From: JBHIBR01 sp046759145 [NCBI: Nitrospinota bacterium] | GTDB taxonomy: Bacteria > UBA8248 | Assembly: GCA_046759145.1 (NCBI GenBank) | Contig: JBHIBR010000134.1 | Location: forward strand, 1-5,659 | Direction of reading: 5' to 3' | DNA length: 5,659 nt | Notes under the pieces: generated by a model | Database searches by the model: none | What the model was told of the DNA's origin: nothing | Seen by the model: only the letters and a program-made list of their open reading frames with translations | Program-made: the position numbers and the translations under genes | Part shown: positions 96 through 5,659 of the stretch, piece after piece | Layout of the letters: each line of letters opens with the position of its first letter | How positions within the stretch are numbered: the first letter of the stretch is position 1

Positions 96-2237
96 TTGAC
101 GAGAGAGGAGAGGGGAGGCCGGCCGACGGGGGGCGCCTTCGGGCAAACCCGGTTCGCCGTGGGCGTGGATGTGGGTGGGACCTTCACCGATGCGGTGGTG
201 GTGGACACCGAGCGGGGGATCCTCCATCAGTCGAAGGCCCCCACCACCCCTGCCGACCTCTCCCAAGGGGTCTTCGACGCCCTGGAGATCGGCAATGGGC
301 TCTCCGCCGAGACTCTCCTGCCGCGGACGGGGAAGTTCGCCCACGGTACCACCCAGTCCTCCAACGCACTCCTCATGCGGAGGGGCGCGAAGGTGGGACT
401 CATCGCCACTCGGGGGTTCGGGGATCAGATCCTCATCATGCGCGGCGGGGGGCGCGTGGCGGGGATGGGCCTGCCCGAGCGCCGCCACTTCGCCCCCACG
501 CGGAAGCCCGACCCCTTGGTCCCCAGGCCCCTTATCCGCGAGGTGGCCGAGCGGGTGGACTACAAGGGGGCCATCCTCACCCCCCTGGACCCCCAGGAAG
601 CGCGGCGGGCTGTTCGGGAGCTGCTGGATGAGGGCGTCGAGGCCATCGCCATTGCTCTTCTGTGGTCTTTCCGGAATCCGGCTCACGAGCGCGCTTTGCG
701 AGGGGTTGCCGCCGAGCTCTCGCCCGGGATGTACGTAACCGTCTCCTCCGAGCTGGCGCCCGTCATTGGGGAGTACGAGCGCACGGCCACCGCCGTCATC
801 GACGCCTATGTGGGCCCCTCCACCGTTGCCTACGTCCAGCGACTCGTGGGGCGGCTGCAGGCGGCGGGCCTGCGCTGCCCCCTCCTCATTCTCCAGGCGG
901 GCGGCGGCGCCAGCCGAGCCGAGCGGGTGGTTTCCGTCCGCACCATCGAGTCGGGCCCTGCGGCGGGCGTCCTGGCCAGCCAGTACCTGGCCGAGCGGCT
1001 GGGGTTCCGCAACGTCATCGCCACCGATGTGGGCGGAACTACCTTCAAGGTGGGCCTCATCGTGGACGGGGCTTGGGCCTATGCCCGAGAGACGGTGGTG
1101 GGACAGTACACCTACCGGGTGCCCATGGTGGATGTGACCTCCATCGGGGCTGGGGGCGGCTCCATCGCCTGGGTGGATGAGGGGCGACTGCGCATCGGCC
1201 CCCACAGCGCGGCCGCCGACCCGGGCCCCGCTTGCTACGGGCGGGGGGGCGAGGAGCCCACGGTGACGGACGCCGATGTGGTCCTCGGCTACATCGACCC
1301 GGACTACTTCCTCGGGGGACGGATGCCCCTCCAGGCCCCGCTGGCCGAGGAGGCCGTCCGCCGGCGCGTCGCTTTGCCCCTCTTCGGCGGGGACCTCGCG
1401 CGGGCGGCCCTCGGCATCCGCCAGGTGGTGAACGCGCAGATGGCAGACCTCATCCGCAAGGTGACGGTGGAACGCGGCCACGACCCCCGGGACTTCGTCC
1501 TCATGGTCTACGGTGGGGCGGGCCCTACCCATTGCTCCCTCTACGGCCGGGAGGCGGGGCTCGCCCGCGCCATCATCCCGTTCACCGCCCCCGTACACTC
1601 CGCCTTCGGAGCGGTGTCCTCCGATGTGCGCATCACCCTGGAGCGCTCGGACCCCCAGGCCGCTCCCCCGCAGCCGGGTCGAGTGCGGCGACTCTACCGG
1701 GAGCTGGAGCGGGAGGCTCTGGACCGACTTCGGGCCCAGGGCAAGAGGCGCGGCGAGGTCGAGCTGCGCCGCTCGGCCTCGCTGCGCTACCGCCGGCAGA
1801 TGCACGAGCTGAGCGTCCCCGTCCCTCGCGGGCAGCTGGACGGGCGGGCGCTGGGGCGGGTGGTGGCCGAATTCGAGCGGCGCTACGAGGCACGCTACGG
1901 TCGGGGGGCAGCCTACCGCGAGGCGGGAGTGGAGTTCATTGGCTTCAAGGTGGAGGCGACCGGAAGAGAGGCGAAGCCTCCCCTTGTCCGGAGACGCCCG
2001 GGAGGGGCGGACCCCCGCCGCGCCCTCAAGGGCCAGCGCCCCGTGTGCTTCGACGCCGCCCAGGGCTATCGTCGCACCCGGATCTACGAAGGCGAGCGAC
2101 TGGTGACCGGAAACATCGTCCGGGGGCCCGCCATCATCGAGCATCCCTCCACAACGGTCGTGGCGGCGCCCGGCCAATGGGCCGAGGTAGACCCTTACCG
2201 GGACCTGGTCCTTCACCTGAGGGGGGGCCGAAGATGA
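96..2237 (+). CDS. hyuA: HyuA-type ATP-dependent subunit (hydantoinase A / oxoprolinase / acetone carboxylase beta family)
   Basis: This 713-residue protein is full length for the family. It is expected to be cytosolic and to use ATP to phosphorylate the carbonyl oxygen of a substrate that its HyuB partner then processes. The N-terminal domain (about 20-200) has the phosphate loop VDVGGTFTDAVVVD at 24-37 and FAHGTTQSSNALL at 81-93. The main domain (about 215-480) has EYERTA at 226-231, LQAGGG at 266-271, ESGPAAG at 285-291, TDVGGTTFKVG at 310-320, SIGAGGGSIAW at 349-359, ADPGPACYG from 374, ERGHDPRDF from 459 and YGGAGPTH at 472-479. The C-terminal domain has FERRYEARYG at 593-602 followed by VEFIGFKVEA. 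The second ATP loop reads DVGGTTFK, not the DxGGTTAKAS of the second hyuA here, so the two belong to different subgroups. The stop overlaps the hyuB start by four bases, implying coupled translation and one complex. Family assignment is firm. The substrate is unknown, and a carboxylase role is inferred from the partner. Confidence 0.93.
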   Translation: MTREERGGRPTGGAFGQTRFAVGVDVGGTFTDAVVVDTERGILHQSKAPTTPADLSQGVFDALEIGNGLSAETLLPRTGKFAHGTTQSSNALLMRRGAKVGLIATRGFGDQILIMRGGGRVAGMGLPERRHFAPTRKPDPLVPRPLIREVAERVDYKGAILTPLDPQEARRAVRELLDEGVEAIAIALLWSFRNPAHERALRGVAAELSPGMYVTVSSELAPVIGEYERTATAVIDAYVGPSTVAYVQRLVGRLQAAGLRCPLLILQAGGGASRAERVVSVRTIESGPAAGVLASQYLAERLGFRNVIATDVGGTTFKVGLIVDGAWAYARETVVGQYTYRVPMVDVTSIGAGGGSIAWVDEGRLRIGPHSAAADPGPACYGRGGEEPTVTDADVVLGYIDPDYFLGGRMPLQAPLAEEAVRRRVALPLFGGDLARAALGIRQVVNAQMADLIRKVTVERGHDPRDFVLMVYGGAGPTHCSLYGREAGLARAIIPFTAPVHSAFGAVSSDVRITLERSDPQAAPPQPGRVRRLYRELEREALDRLRAQGKRRGEVELRRSASLRYRRQMHELSVPVPRGQLDGRALGRVVAEFERRYEARYGRGAAYREAGVEFIGFKVEATGREAKPPLVRRRPGGADPRRALKGQRPVCFDAAQGYRRTRIYEGERLVTGNIVRGPAIIEHPSTTVVAAPGQWAEVDPYRDLVLHLRGGRR
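2219..2237 (+). promoter_or_regulatory. Ribosome binding site and ATGA stop-start overlap between hyuA and hyuB
   Basis: GAGGGGGGG at 2219-2227 lies 6 bases before the ATG at 2234. The hyuA stop TGA (2235-2237) sits inside ATGA, so ribosomes ending hyuA are placed to start hyuB. This fixes the hyuB start. The same frame stays open far upstream (to about 1232), but that stretch lies inside the hyuA coding frame and reads as low-complexity Arg/Gly/Pro. Confidence 0.85.
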
Positions 2238-4465
2238 GCGGCCGGCGGCTGGACCCGGTGACCTTCGAGGTGATCCTCCACAAGCTGAACCAGATTGCCG
2301 AGGAGATGTGCATCAGTTACATCAACTGCTCCGGATCGGAGCCCCTGGTCCAGGCCAACGACGGCAACGCCGGCATCACCCTCGCCGACGGGTCCATGGT
2401 GGTGGTGGGGCCCTACGTCATCATCCAGGCGAACGTGCTGCCCCTCACCATTGCCAAGGTCCTCGAGCGCTGCCGGGAGAACCCGGGCATCGGCGAGGGG
2501 GACATGTTCATCTGCAACGACCCTTGGGTGGGCCCCATCCATCAACCGGACATCACCACCGTGGCACCCCTCTTTCACGGGGGGGAGATCTTCTGCTGGA
2601 CGGGCGCTTCGGGGCACCAGTCGGATGTGGGGGGGAAGGACCCCGGCGGCTTCTCCATCGGCGTGGTGGACGTCCACCAGGAGGGCCTGCGAATGCCCCC
2701 GGCGAAGCTGGTGGAAGGGGGGGAGTTGCGGCGAGACCTCTTTGACTGGGTGTTGAACGCCGTGCGGGATCCCCTGGTGGGGCTGGACGTCAAGGCCCAG
2801 ATCGCGGCCAACCACGTGGGCCAGGCGCGCCTGCGGGAGCTCATCGAGCGCTTCGGGGCCGAGACGGTTAAGGCCTGCATGGAGGAATCCATACGCTACA
2901 GCGAGTCCCGCTTCCGCAAGCGCCTGACCTCCTTGCCCGATGGGACCTGGCGCACCCGGCAGTACATCGACCACGACGGCCACGCCCCCAACCTCTACAA
3001 GCTGGAGTGCACCATGACCAAACGGGGCGACCGGCTCGCCTTCGACTACGAGGGCACCGACCCCCAGGTCCGAAGCCAGATCAATTGCACCTACACGGGC
3101 CTCATCGCCGGCACCCTCACCCCTGTCTACATCATGCTCTGCCACGACATCCCCTGGAACCGGGGCATCCTGAACCGGGTGGACATCCGCGCCCCCGAGG
3201 GGGTTATCAACAACTGTCTCTATCCCACCCCCTGCTCCATGGCCACGGTATCCGCCTGCTACCTGACCCTGGACCTTGCCGCCGCCGCCATCGCCCAGAT
3301 GTGCGCCGCTTCTCCTGACTACCACCAGGAGGCCATGGCCATCTGGACCGCCGCCTCAGTGGCGCCCATGGTGAGCGGCACCAACCAGCACGGCCACCCC
3401 TTCAGCCTGGTGGAGATGAGCCACTTTGCCGCCGGGGGGGGCGCCCTTACCCACCGAGACGGGGTGGACAGCGCGGGGATGTATTTCACCACCACGCCCC
3501 TCATCTCGAACATTGAGACCACCGAGCAGTTTTATCCCGTGCTCTACCTCTTCCGCCGACAGCTCCCGGACTCGGGTGGCCCCGGCATGTACCGGGGCGG
3601 CTGCGCCGGCGAGATCGCCTTCATCCCACACGGCCACGGGGGGGAGTTTCTGGAGACGGTCCTCATCGGCACCGGCCACGAGATGCCCAACTCGGTTGGC
3701 TTGTGGGGCGGCTTTCCCGGCGGGTGCGGGCGCCACATCCGCATCCGAGGCTCGGAGATCGCGGAGCGGCTCGGGCGGGGCGATCCCCTCCCGGCGAGCT
3801 TGGAGGGGATGGGGGGTGAGTGGGAGGTCTTCCCGCCCAAGGCCCCCCGCACGCCCTTCTTCCCCGGGCAGGTCTGGTACTCCAGCTGGCAGGGGGCGGG
3901 GGGATACGGCGACCCTCTGGACCGCGATCCCGAGAAGGTACTCGCCGACGTGGCGGGAGGTCTCGTCTCCCCCTCCTGCGCGCGGGAGATCTACGGCGTT
4001 GTCCCGAGTCCTGAGGGCGGCGTGGACCATCCGGCCACCGAAGCCCTGAGAGAGCGTCACCGGGCAGAGCGCCGCTCCCGGGCGGGTGGCGGCCCTGCGG
4101 GCGGCGGCCCTGTGGAATGCGGCGAGCCACCCCGGCTCGTGGGGAGGGGGCTCAGGTGCAAGGAGTACGTTGTCTGGGACGAGGCGAGGGGGGAGCTCTT
4201 CTGCCGCAAGTGCGGCTTCTCCTTCGGCCCTCTCGACGCCGACCCCAAGGGGCGCGCCCTATGGGAGGATGCCCCGCTCTCCCGTGCGGGGCCGGTCATG
4301 GGCCAGCTTTACGACCGGGGGCGGTTCGTCCTGAGGCTCTATTATTGTCCCGGCTGTCTCGCCCTCCTGGAGTGCGAAGTGCTCCGAAGGGGAGACCCCC
4401 CCGTCGGCTCACAGCTCGCCCGGGCGCGGGCCGGGATGCCGAGGAGGGCCAAGAAAAAGGGTTAA
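2234..4465 (+). CDS. hyuB: HyuB-type metal-site subunit with fused acetone-carboxylase-gamma-like C-terminal domain
   Basis: This 743-residue protein has two parts. Residues 1 to about 610 form a complete HyuB / acetone carboxylase alpha-type subunit. It opens with LDPVTFEVILHKLNQIAEEM, then has MFICNDPWVGPIHQPD at 91-106, GHQSDVGGKDPGG from 127, PDSGGPGMYRGG at 445-456, and the usual family ending GYGDPLDRDPEKVLADV from 557. His103, Asp106 and His128 have the same spacing as the Mn ligands I recall for Xanthobacter acetone carboxylase alpha (His150, Asp153, His175). NDPW...HQPD looks more carboxylase-like than the NDPY...HLPD usual in hydantoinases. A Gly/Pro/Arg-rich linker (about 611-636) leads to a cysteine-rich domain with FCRKCG at 656-661 and YYCPGC at 703-708, resembling the separate gamma subunit. 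It ends in a basic tail, RRAKKKG. No frame change occurs between the parts. Probable role: carboxylation or hydrolysis of the substrate phosphorylated by the upstream HyuA. Substrate not determined. Confidence 0.93.
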   Translation: MSGRRLDPVTFEVILHKLNQIAEEMCISYINCSGSEPLVQANDGNAGITLADGSMVVVGPYVIIQANVLPLTIAKVLERCRENPGIGEGDMFICNDPWVGPIHQPDITTVAPLFHGGEIFCWTGASGHQSDVGGKDPGGFSIGVVDVHQEGLRMPPAKLVEGGELRRDLFDWVLNAVRDPLVGLDVKAQIAANHVGQARLRELIERFGAETVKACMEESIRYSESRFRKRLTSLPDGTWRTRQYIDHDGHAPNLYKLECTMTKRGDRLAFDYEGTDPQVRSQINCTYTGLIAGTLTPVYIMLCHDIPWNRGILNRVDIRAPEGVINNCLYPTPCSMATVSACYLTLDLAAAAIAQMCAASPDYHQEAMAIWTAASVAPMVSGTNQHGHPFSLVEMSHFAAGGGALTHRDGVDSAGMYFTTTPLISNIETTEQFYPVLYLFRRQLPDSGGPGMYRGGCAGEIAFIPHGHGGEFLETVLIGTGHEMPNSVGLWGGFPGGCGRHIRIRGSEIAERLGRGDPLPASLEGMGGEWEVFPPKAPRTPFFPGQVWYSSWQGAGGYGDPLDRDPEKVLADVAGGLVSPSCAREIYGVVPSPEGGVDHPATEALRERHRAERRSRAGGGPAGGGPVECGEPPRLVGRGLRCKEYVVWDEARGELFCRKCGFSFGPLDADPKGRALWEDAPLSRAGPVMGQLYDRGRFVLRLYYCPGCLALLECEVLRRGDPPVGSQLARARAGMPRRAKKKG
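4139..4462 (+). other. Acetone-carboxylase-gamma-like zinc-ribbon domain fused to HyuB
   Basis: This part of the HyuB protein covers residues 636-743. Visible cysteines are Cys642, the pair Cys657/Cys660 (CRKC), the pair Cys705/Cys708 (CPGC) and Cys714. Two CxxC pairs 45 residues apart suit one zinc site. The segment LRLYYCPGCLALLECEV followed by GDPP recalls the C-terminal REYxCPxCGTLxxVE of acetone carboxylase gamma subunits (Acetone_carb_G family). The known gamma subunit is about 165 residues in Xanthobacter and is encoded by its own gene. Here only the zinc-binding half seems kept. GTG codons at 4112 and 4139 could in principle start a free copy, but neither has a good ribosome binding site. 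The match is by eye and moderate. An unrelated zinc ribbon remains possible. Confidence 0.6.
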
Positions 4466-4577: not shown

Positions 4578-5659
4578 GTGGCGGCACCGGGCTATCGCAT
4601 AGGTGCCGACATTGGTGGCACCTTCACCGACCTCGTTTTCTGCAGGGGCGACGGCTCGATCCGGGTGCGCAAGCTCCCTTCCTCACCAGAGGACTACGCC
4701 CGCCCCGTTCTGGAGGCCGTGGGGGCCTTCCTGGCAGAGGAGCGCCTGGGAGGGGAGGCGGTCTCGGAGCTGGTCCACGGGACCACGGTCGCCACCAACG
4801 CCATCCTCCAGCGGGCGGGCGCCCGCACCGGTCTCCTGACCACCCGGGGATTCCGCGACGTGCTGGAGATCCGGCGTGTGCGGCTTCCGAAGCTCTACGA
4901 CCTGACCTGGGAGAAGCCTCCGCCCCTGGTTCCGCGCCGGCTCCGCCTGGAGGTGGACGAGCGCCTGGATGCGCGAGGGCAGGTGATCCGCCCCCTCTCG
5001 GAGGGGAGCGCCCAGGAGGCCATCCGAGAGCTGAGCGCGCAAGGGGTGGAGTCGGTGGCTGTATGCTTCCTGCACGCTTACGCCAACGACGCCCACGAGC
5101 GCCGCCTGGAGGAGCTCCTGCGGGAGATGCTGCCCGGCGTTCCCGTCTCTCTCTCCTCCCGGGTCTTGCCCAAGATGCGCGAGTACGAGCGCACCGCCAC
5201 CACGGTGGTGAATGCCTACCTGCAGCCCCTGGTCCAAGGATACCTGGAGAATTTGCAGGCGGGCCTCCGGGCGGCCGGCTTGGGGGCTCCCTTGCGCCTC
5301 ATGCAGAGCAACGGCGGGCTGCTTTCCGCGGGGGTGACCACGGAGCGGCCGGTGCATTTGGTGGAGTCGGGCCCCGCGGCGGGCGTCATCGCCGCCCTGG
5401 GTGTGGCGCGGCAGATGGACATGCAGAACGCCCTGACCCTGGACGTGGGGGGCACCACGGCCAAGGCTTCCATCATCGAGGGGGGAGAGCTCTCGTGGAC
5501 GGCGGAGATCGAGGTGGGGGCGGAGATCTCCCGCGGGAGCCGTCTCATCAAGGGGGCCGGATACCCCATCGGCCTCCCGACGGTGGACATCGCCGAGGTA
5601 GGAGCGGGGGGCGGTTCGGTGGCCTGGCTGGAGGCGGGCGGCACCCTGAGGGTGGGGCC
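4578..5659 (+). CDS. hyuA: Second HyuA-type ATP-dependent subunit, 3' end outside the window
   Basis: The frame is open from GTG 4578 to the window edge: 360 full codons plus the first two bases of a proline codon, about half of a usual 650-720 residue HyuA. The start is set by AAGGAGG at 4564-4570 and by the stop at 4536-4538. The phosphate loop follows at once: IGADIGGTFTD at residues 8-18. Then come LVHGTTVATNA at 65-75, TTRGFRDVLEI from 88, EYERTATTVVNAYL from 202, MQSNGG at 242-247, ESGPAAG at 263-269, LDVGGTTAKASII from 288 and AEVGAGGGSVAW at 339-350. DxGGTTAKAS and SRLIKGAGYP are typical of hydantoinase or N-methylhydantoinase A-like proteins and differ from the first hyuA (DVGGTTFKVG, LQAGGG). 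It is therefore a diverged paralogue, not a recent duplicate. Expected role: ATP-dependent activation of a carbonyl or lactam substrate. A matching hyuB may lie just downstream. Confidence 0.93.
   Translation, partial: MAAPGYRIGADIGGTFTDLVFCRGDGSIRVRKLPSSPEDYARPVLEAVGAFLAEERLGGEAVSELVHGTTVATNAILQRAGARTGLLTTRGFRDVLEIRRVRLPKLYDLTWEKPPPLVPRRLRLEVDERLDARGQVIRPLSEGSAQEAIRELSAQGVESVAVCFLHAYANDAHERRLEELLREMLPGVPVSLSSRVLPKMREYERTATTVVNAYLQPLVQGYLENLQAGLRAAGLGAPLRLMQSNGGLLSAGVTTERPVHLVESGPAAGVIAALGVARQMDMQNALTLDVGGTTAKASIIEGGELSWTAEIEVGAEISRGSRLIKGAGYPIGLPTVDIAEVGAGGGSVAWLEAGGTLRVG

What the first reader, a model, noticed from the sequence alone, without database searches (positions are those of the whole stretch)
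4050..4465. HyuB/alpha subunit fused to a gamma-like zinc-ribbon domain
Acetone and acetophenone carboxylases carry a separate small gamma subunit, while hydantoinases and oxoprolinases have none. Here a complete HyuB ends in its usual GYGDPLDRDP segment and continues in frame through a Gly/Pro/Arg linker into a CxxC-x44-CxxC domain with a YYCPGC...ECEV segment like that of the gamma family. The fusion would force 1:1 alpha:gamma stoichiometry and points to a carboxylase, not a hydantoinase. The seen part is the continuous frame and the cysteines. The gamma homology is recalled by eye.
Basis: partly seen in the sequence, partly recalled or inferred. Interest (0 to 1): 0.6.

Follow-up and report, generated by a model that had tools for sequence, protein, structure and literature searches.

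The report
HyuB fused to carboxylase gamma domain
One gene joins two parts that in known ketone carboxylases are separate proteins, the large metal-binding subunit and a small zinc-binding subunit; the same joined gene recurs in several phyla under the label hydantoinase, and probably marks an unstudied group of ATP-driven carboxylases.

Summary
ORF 2234-4465 (743 aa) is a HyuB (PF02538, residues 7-561) that continues in frame into a CxxC-x44-CxxC domain (C657, C660, C705, C708). The window tail alone scores just under the Acetone_carb_G cut-off (19.1 against 21 bits). A profile of 25 fused tails finds acetophenone carboxylase (E 1.8e-11) and acetone carboxylase (4.6e-11) small subunits as its only significant PDB matches, and matches stand-alone gammas by hhalign (99.5%, 4.6e-23). 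The fusion is no artefact: I count 31 genes, in Nitrospinota (6 of 18 genomes), Chloroflexota (10 of 400), Bacillota (4 of 398), on three plasmids of other groups, and the window. Haloarchaeal relatives have the unit as three genes, alpha-beta-gamma. In a beta tree (93 rows) 50 gamma-bearing rows, window included, form a clade (100/99) apart from 39 gamma-less rows and caprolactamase beta; three rows (one fused, its untailed neighbour, one gamma-less) lie between. The window is outside the acetone and acetophenone carboxylase subclades. The alpha tree does not show the split. Carboxylase chemistry is therefore inferred, not shown; substrate unknown. A new variant of a known kind; I found no description of the fusion in the open-access library searched, though Pfam already detects both domains in several members.

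The parts
96..2237 (+). HyuA1, alpha (ASKHA ATPase/kinase) subunit, 713 aa from a TTG start; its stop overlaps the HyuB start
   Evidence: Pfam Hydant_A_N, Hydantoinase_A, Hydant_A_C; best solved relative 5l9w_B, Apc alpha, 452.9 bits; groups with alphas of other Nitrospinota fused units
2234..4465 (+). fused HyuB::gamma gene, 743 aa plus stop
2234..4081 (+). HyuB (beta) part, residues 1-616
   Evidence: PF02538 residues 7-561; phmmer to 5l9w_A 5-616 and 6yra_B 6-609
2360..2617 (+). metal-site tetrad of beta: D43 (2360-2362), H103 (2540-2542), D106 (2549-2551), H128 (2615-2617)
   Evidence: aligned to Asp65/His123/Asp126/His148 of Apc beta and Asp41/His99/Asp102/His124 of CapB (residues from PMC8453981 passages)
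3902..3931 (+). GYGDPLDRDP segment (residues 557-566)
4082..4153 (+). Gly/Pro/Arg-rich linker, about residues 617-640
   Evidence: between the end of HyuB homology and the start of gamma homology; variable in length among relatives
4154..4405 (+). gamma-subunit-like zinc-ribbon domain, about residues 641-724, with C657, C660, C705, C708
   Evidence: Acetone_carb_G 19.1 bits, E 0.0016 for the tail alone, below the cut-off of 21; family profile to 5l9w_C E 1.8e-11 and 5m45_C E 4.6e-11; hhalign E 4.6e-23
4406..4462 (+). basic C-terminal end, residues 725-743, poorly conserved (38% of 16 aligned residues in L001)

Best explanation
[quoted passage not shown] Proposed working: the alpha subunit uses ATP to phosphorylate the enol form of a carbonyl substrate and bicarbonate. 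The phosphorylated intermediates pass to the D-H-D-H metal site of beta, where the C-C bond forms. The zinc ribbon, tied to beta by a flexible linker, folds back on beta and takes the place of the separate gamma of acetone and acetophenone carboxylases, as a structural clamp at the alpha/beta/gamma cleft rather than a catalytic part. Shown here: the fusion, the gamma homology, the conserved cysteines and metal tetrad, the place of beta in the tree. Inferred from the known enzymes: phosphorylation, transfer, carboxylation, where gamma docks. Unknown: substrate.
For: Gamma homology: PF08882 matches 16 of 25 fused tails at E<=0.01, best 4.2e-11, and 10 of 10 stand-alone gammas; the PDB profile search finds only Apc and Acx gammas before a next chain at 0.058; hhalign 99.5%. 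The second cysteine pair is CPxC in 25 of 25 tails of A2, the first CxxC in 24 and CxC in L070. Unfused state: relatives in Natronosalvus and Haladaptatus have alpha-beta-gamma as three adjacent genes, gamma annotated as acetone carboxylase subunit gamma; Bacillota G509 likewise twice. Tree: 50 gamma-bearing rows (29 fused, 20 separate, Apc beta) form a clade at 100/99; 39 gamma-less rows plus CapB split off at 100/100. Tetrad D or E-H-D-H in 24 of 24 fused rows then in hand. CoA-forming enzymes lie near 6 of the 15 fused loci of which I tested neighbours, as apc genes lie with a benzoylacetate-CoA ligase gene (PMC5214803 passages).
Against: I found no known activity for a fused member. The tetrad is shared with the gamma-less kind (35 of 40 rows are DHDH), so it does not tell carboxylase from hydrolase. 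The alpha tree does not separate the kinds: alphas of six gamma-less G001 units nest with alphas of three fused units (95 SH-aLRT, quick tree). Of the Nitrospinota fused loci four had one neighbour tested each, and none is a CoA enzyme: M29 peptidase, hydroxyacid dehydrogenase, IlvD/Edd, ABC transporter. Fused locus L100 lies by a permease of the cytosine/purine family (PF02133). The window tail alone is below the Pfam cut-off. One fused row and one gamma-less row lie together between the two halves of the tree. Absence of gamma from the gamma-less genomes is not firm, because the PF08882 search missed 5 of 6 known fused genes in Nitrospinota. The two AlphaFold models are too poor to use (mean pLDDT 50.7 and 34.6).
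Confidence: 0.6

Rival explanations
1. The tail is a true gamma domain but the enzyme is an ATP-dependent hydrolase (lactamase, hydantoinase or oxoprolinase type); gamma is only a stabiliser and says nothing about chemistry.
For: Caprolactamase needs bicarbonate too, so the chemistries are close (PMC8453981 passages). HyuA1 scores highest with the caprolactamase alpha model among NCBIfam models, 545 against 466 bits for ApcC, both far below their cut-offs. The alpha tree does not separate the kinds. A gamma-less beta (L092_9903), a fused one (L184_6480) and a beta beside it (L184_8877) lie together between the two halves. A permease of the cytosine/purine family lies by L100.
Against: The characterised gamma-bearing enzymes named in PMC5214803, Acx and Apc, are carboxylases, and it reports gamma absent from any Hyd complex. 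Beta places the window with the gamma-bearing clade.
Confidence: 0.33
2. A generic zinc ribbon, unrelated to carboxylase gamma, was attached to HyuB.
For: For the window tail alone the TFIIB-type zinc ribbon scores better than Acetone_carb_G (E 0.00019 against 0.0016).
Against: That match covers 20 residues round one CxxC; Acetone_carb_G covers 80 residues and both cysteine pairs. The family profile favours gamma by nine orders of magnitude in E-value over the next PDB chain.
Confidence: 0.03
3. Assembly artefact or frameshift that joins two genes.
For: The source of the window is not told and no reads can be seen.
Against: The same join in 31 genes from several phyla, in cultured organisms too; codon-position pattern in linker and gamma domain.
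Confidence: 0.01

Closest known systems
[quoted passage not shown]
   Same: Closest solved relatives of both HyuA1 and HyuB; gamma with four cysteines tightly associated with beta (PMC5214803 passages)
   Different: In Apc gamma is a separate gene between those of alpha' and alpha, and alpha' and epsilon are present. Here gamma is fused to the end of beta and no alpha' is seen: the second HyuA in the window groups with alphas of gamma-less units
Acetone carboxylase (alpha beta gamma)2 of Xanthobacter autotrophicus (5m45, 5svb)
   Same: Gamma homologous to the tail (E 4.6e-11); gene order alpha, beta, gamma (in the unified naming of PMC5214803), as the fused gene reads
   Different: Acx gamma is separate and carries about 50 more N-terminal residues than Apc gamma (PMC5214803); Acx-type betas and alphas form their own subclades, without the window
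Three-gene alpha-beta-gamma units of haloarchaeal plasmids (Natronosalvus halobius, Haladaptatus pallidirubidus) and of Bacillota G509
   Same: Same order; haloarchaeal betas 38-39% identical to the window; gamma like the tail
   Different: Gamma is a separate gene that overlaps or nearly abuts the end of beta
ATP-dependent hydantoinases, oxoprolinases and caprolactamase CapAB (6yra)
   Same: Alpha and beta homology, D-H-D-H metal site, two-gene layout
   Different: No gamma; CapB and 39 of 40 gamma-less betas lie on the other side of the tree

Membership tests
Acetone_carb_G (PF08882), gamma subunits | Score over the curated cut-off of 21 bits | tested here: inconclusive
   Window tail 19.1 bits alone, 15.5 as whole protein, both below; its ortholog in G001 20.1, or 21.2 with its neighbours; fused tails of Halorientalis, Niveispirillum, M. 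branderi and L177 at 28.1-44.6 bits
Acetone_carb_G (PF08882), gamma subunits | Four zinc cysteines in two pairs about 45-50 residues apart, the second as CPxC | tested here: met
   C657, C660, C705, C708; the second pair is CPxC in 25 of 25 tails of A2, the first CxxC in 24 and CxC in L070. Zinc binding itself not tested
Acetone_carb_G (PF08882), gamma subunits | Profile-level homology to gammas of known structure | tested here: met
Gamma-bearing (ketone carboxylase) half of the family | Beta groups with betas of units that have gamma | tested here: met
   core of 50 rows at 100/99
Gamma-bearing (ketone carboxylase) half of the family | Alpha groups with alphas of units that have gamma, apart from gamma-less ones | tested here: inconclusive
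   HyuA1 groups with five Nitrospinota fused partners (98), but gamma-less alphas nest among other fused partners
Gamma-bearing (ketone carboxylase) half of the family | ATP- and bicarbonate-dependent carboxylation | not testable with these tools
   needs enzyme assay
Acetone carboxylase (Acx) | Alpha and beta inside the Acx subclade; separate, longer gamma | tested here: not met
   The eight Acx-type loci form their own clades in beta (100/100) and alpha (100) without the window
Acetophenone carboxylase (Apc) | Gene order alpha', gamma, alpha, beta (epsilon); NCBIfam ApcD and ApcC equivalogs | tested here: not met
   Order here is alpha, beta::gamma; ApcD 227 bits against a cut-off of 1500, ApcC 466 against 1500; outside the Apc-type subclades
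Hydantoinase/oxoprolinase/caprolactamase (Hyd) | Alpha and beta only, no gamma | tested here: not met
   gamma domain present; beta on the other side of the tree

The most novel reading that the evidence does not exclude
The beta::gamma enzymes are further classes of ATP-dependent carboxylases beside Acx and Apc, with their own substrates, and the fused state is the older one: the stand-alone gammas of acetone and acetophenone carboxylase arose by splitting off from a fused gene.
Probability: 0.25. Interest if true: 0.6.

Novelty: new variant of a known kind. Interest (0 to 1): 0.42.

Why it matters
The role of gamma is called not clear in PMC5543143 (passages). In the sample here its presence goes with one half of the beta tree, whether gamma is fused or separate, which suggests that it matters for the carboxylating branch. 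A fused gene lets that be tested by cutting the tail off one protein, and it gives a simple sequence mark for picking probable carboxylases out of the many genes named hydantoinase B.

Tried and rejected
Triple fusion HyuA-HyuB-gamma: frames of 1499 and 1507 aa in G340 and G239 looked like it, but HyuA lies in another frame and the long frame is only open upstream of HyuB. Rejected.

The second HyuA (4578 onward) as an alpha' of this enzyme: it groups with alphas of gamma-less G001 units (100 SH-aLRT, quick tree), its matches in G001 are 35-48% identical, so no close ortholog, and L001 has an M29 peptidase gene downstream instead. A loose pattern for the alpha/alpha' fingerprint of PMC5214803 (R/KERiDsxG) matched HyuA2 (DERLDARG) and not HyuA1 (by eye AERVDYKG); neither has the R/K, so I give it no weight. 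It looks like the start of a separate hydrolase-type unit.

Foldseek with the tail model puts four acetone carboxylase gamma chains first, but at E 0.055-0.12, and two rows of that alignment were themselves gammas; I give it no weight.

Direction of fusion: unordered parsimony needs 4 changes with a fused root of the gamma core and 5 with a separate one (4 and 6 for the wider set) on the 88-row tree, and 6 against 7 (6 and 8) on the 93-row tree. Undecided; the rows were found with gamma profiles, which biases such a count. Separate gamma in L183 was read from frames; its gamma frame overlaps the end of HyuB, so a frameshift in a fused gene is not excluded.

Matches not counted: of the A1 hits, L045/L076, L049/L077, L050/L078 and L066/L080 read by eye as other proteins; L051, L052, L065 were not followed. 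L033 and L034 (weak or contig-edge PF08882 hits) were not followed. L074 (G019) holds a gamma but no HyuA or HyuB match in its 10.5 kb and was not classed. L185 (G491) held no HyuB. L179 and L182 hold a gamma at a contig edge and were not classed. L090 (G111) is fused but its HyuB is cut, so it is among the 31 and not in the trees. L115 and L125 (same genes as rows already in) and the fragment L126 were left out of the trees. Of the 30 plasmid records listed five were opened.
Full report
What is there. The window holds HyuA1 (96-2237), a HyuB with a C-terminal extension (2234-4465) and the first 360 codons of a second HyuA (4578 to the end). Pfam finds Hydantoinase_B over residues 7-561 of the HyuB. 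HyuB homology runs on past GYGDPLDRDP to residue 609 or 616, so the added part is a linker of about 24 residues and a domain of about 84 residues with C657, C660, C705 and C708.

Is the tail a gamma subunit? Alone, the window tail gives Acetone_carb_G at 19.1 bits, E 0.0016, over 80 residues, just under the cut-off of 21; the TFIIB zinc ribbon scores better (E 0.00019) but over 20 residues. Its best PDB match is the small subunit of acetophenone carboxylase, 5l9w_C, E 0.011. To decide, I gathered relatives. One Nitrospinota MAG has an ortholog with the same fusion (L001, tail 73% identical). Searching 18 genomes of that phylum with the window tail gave 6 with a match, all in the frame of a HyuB. 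An alignment of these seven tails (A1) then matched 18 of 400 Chloroflexota and 8 of 398 Bacillota genomes; some of these matches are other proteins or separate gammas. A PF08882 search of the same two sets matched 17 of 400 and 9 of 398, but in Nitrospinota it found only 1 of the 6 fused genes, so neither probe is complete. Reading the loci I count fused genes in 6 of 18 Nitrospinota, 10 of 400 Chloroflexota and 4 of 398 Bacillota genomes (6, 16 and 5 genes). A profile of 25 fused tails (A2), built without any stand-alone gamma, has as its only significant PDB matches 5l9w_C (1.8e-11), 5m45_C (4.6e-11) and 5svb_C (5.9e-11); the next chain has 0.058. A2 against ten stand-alone gammas (A3) gives hhalign probability 99.5, E 4.6e-23. 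PF08882 is matched at E<=0.01 by 16 of 25 fused tails and 10 of 10 stand-alone gammas. The tail is a gamma domain.

Named, cultured carriers. A tblastn of the 743-aa protein against plasmids gave 928 records with a match, 25 of them over at least 80% of the query. Of the 30 listed, I opened the first five. Niveispirillum cyanobacteriorum (Alphaproteobacteria), Halorientalis marina (Halobacteria, WP_246989762.1) and Mycobacterium branderi (Actinomycetota, WP_083130707.1) have fused genes, the last two annotated only as hydantoinase B/oxoprolinase family protein, the first without annotation in the table; the tails score 28.1, 35.6 and 32.6 bits with PF08882. Natronosalvus halobius and Haladaptatus pallidirubidus have alpha, beta and gamma as three adjacent genes, with gamma annotated as acetone carboxylase subunit gamma. 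With the window this makes 31 fused genes.

Is it a carboxylase? The beta tree was made from the HyuB part only. With 88 rows, 45 gamma-bearing rows (26 fused, 18 separate, Apc beta) form a clade at 100/100, and 39 gamma-less rows plus caprolactamase beta split off at 100/100. Three rows stand between: L092_9903 (no gamma found), L184_6480 (fused) and L184_8877 (a beta next to the fused one). With five plasmid rows added (93 rows) the gamma-bearing core has 50 rows (29 fused, 20 separate, Apc beta) at 100/99, the 39 gamma-less rows plus CapB again split off at 100/100, and the same three rows lie between. In the first 76-row tree, without L184, gamma presence changed once; with L184 it needs two changes. 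The gamma-less rows come from G001 (12), from 27 loci of a PF02538 search in 41 Chloroflexota genomes (the best-scoring loci only) and from G191 (1). PF08882 searches of their genomes (16 genomes) and the A1 search found no gamma beyond those counted, within the limits of those probes. The fused rows do not form one clade (8 changes of the label, 7 forced by well-supported branches), and lie outside the Acx-type and Apc-type subclades. The alpha tree (quick, 57 rows) is less clear: Acx-type and Apc-type alphas each form a clade, but alphas of six gamma-less G001 units nest with alphas of three fused units. So the carboxylase reading rests on beta and gamma. The metal tetrad is D43, H103, D106, H128 and is present, as D or E-H-D-H, in 24 of 24 fused and 10 of 10 separate rows, and as DHDH in 35 of 40 gamma-less rows; it fits catalysis but does not tell the kinds apart.

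Neighbours. I tested 30 neighbouring genes at 17 loci (15 fused, 2 separate), chosen by eye from an ORF list as adjacent or near. CoA-forming enzymes lie near six of the 15 fused loci: L081, L091 and L093 (family III CoA-transferase, L091 twice), L092 (ATP-grasp CoA ligase type), L071 (CoA-transferase, about 2.9 kb away), L100 (AMP-binding ligase); of the separate ones L099 has an AMP-binding ligase. L081 and L091 also have a citrate-synthase-like gene. L083 and L084 have UbiD decarboxylases nearby. L070 has a B12-binding and a methylaspartate-mutase-E-like gene, L073 a MmgE/PrpD gene. L187 has enoyl-CoA hydratases, MaoC and an AMP-binding protein by annotation. Against this, the genes tested at four Nitrospinota fused loci are none of these, and L100 also has a permease of the cytosine/purine family.

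Mechanism. From the solved enzymes (PMC5214803, passages and section 7; PMC5543143, passages; PMC8453981, passages): the HyuA-like subunit phosphorylates substrate and bicarbonate, intermediates pass to the metal site of the HyuB-like subunit, gamma sits mostly on the HyuB-like subunit, touches the other large subunit with a C-terminal helix, and has no known catalytic role. I expect the fused tail to do the same from a flexible tether. This is inference; the AlphaFold models were too poor to test it.

Novelty. I searched the open-access library with: acetone carboxylase + gamma subunit + fused (2 papers; the one 'fused' in PMC5214803 describes the fold of gamma, and the two in PMC8453981 concern oxoprolinase subunits and a His tag), acetophenone carboxylase / HyuB / hydantoinase (10 papers, listing), acetone carboxylase + structure + zinc + bicarbonate + Xanthobacter (20 listed), acetone carboxylase + gene fusion (unrelated by listing), hydantoinase B + acetone carboxylase + gamma, hydantoinase + ketone carboxylase + fusion + subunit (unrelated by listing), acetone carboxylase + Nitrospinota (two passages seen, only names hyuA as an acetone carboxylase subunit), Acetone_carb_G (a Helicobacter genome paper, not read), PF08882. 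None describes a beta::gamma fusion in what I saw. Subscription papers and InterPro architecture pages were not available, and Pfam models detect both domains in several members, so the architecture may be listed in databases. I rate it a new variant of a known kind.

Noticed in passing
window 4578-5657: A second HyuA, cut by the window end, groups with alphas of gamma-less units of G001 and probably starts a separate hydrolase-type alpha/beta pair.
   Followed up: partly
G001 (L004-L016): The relative's MAG holds 13 HyuB matches, only one with a gamma tail; a large expansion of this family.
   Followed up: partly
L008:3100-3492 (+) and L009:3100-3519 (+): Two other HyuBs of G001 carry a different C-terminal extension; in L008 it weakly matches molybdopterin-dinucleotide-binding and CDC48_N barrel domains, both below cut-off, in L009 nothing. 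HyuB seems to take up other tails too.
   Followed up: partly
L184:6480-10673 (-), G438: A HyuB without tail directly followed by a HyuB::gamma of the same lineage (sisters in the tree): a duplicated beta with only one copy tailed.
   Followed up: no
L094:4784-5323 (-) and L091:8816-9262 (+): Very similar fused genes differ by a run of PAGNA/PADNA-like repeats in the linker, so the tether length varies.
   Followed up: no
L081:4752-6748 (+), L091:9241-13360 (+): A shared cluster alpha, beta::gamma, family III CoA-transferase, citrate-synthase-like protein (plus enoyl-CoA hydratase and a second CoA-transferase in L091), perhaps an unknown carboxylation and CoA-cleavage route.
   Followed up: partly
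L188:2470-2946 (+) (M. branderi plasmid): The fused unit has the order beta::gamma, alpha and lies near a gene annotated as 2,4'-dihydroxyacetophenone dioxygenase family and several cytochromes P450, which hints at an aromatic ketone substrate there.
   Followed up: no
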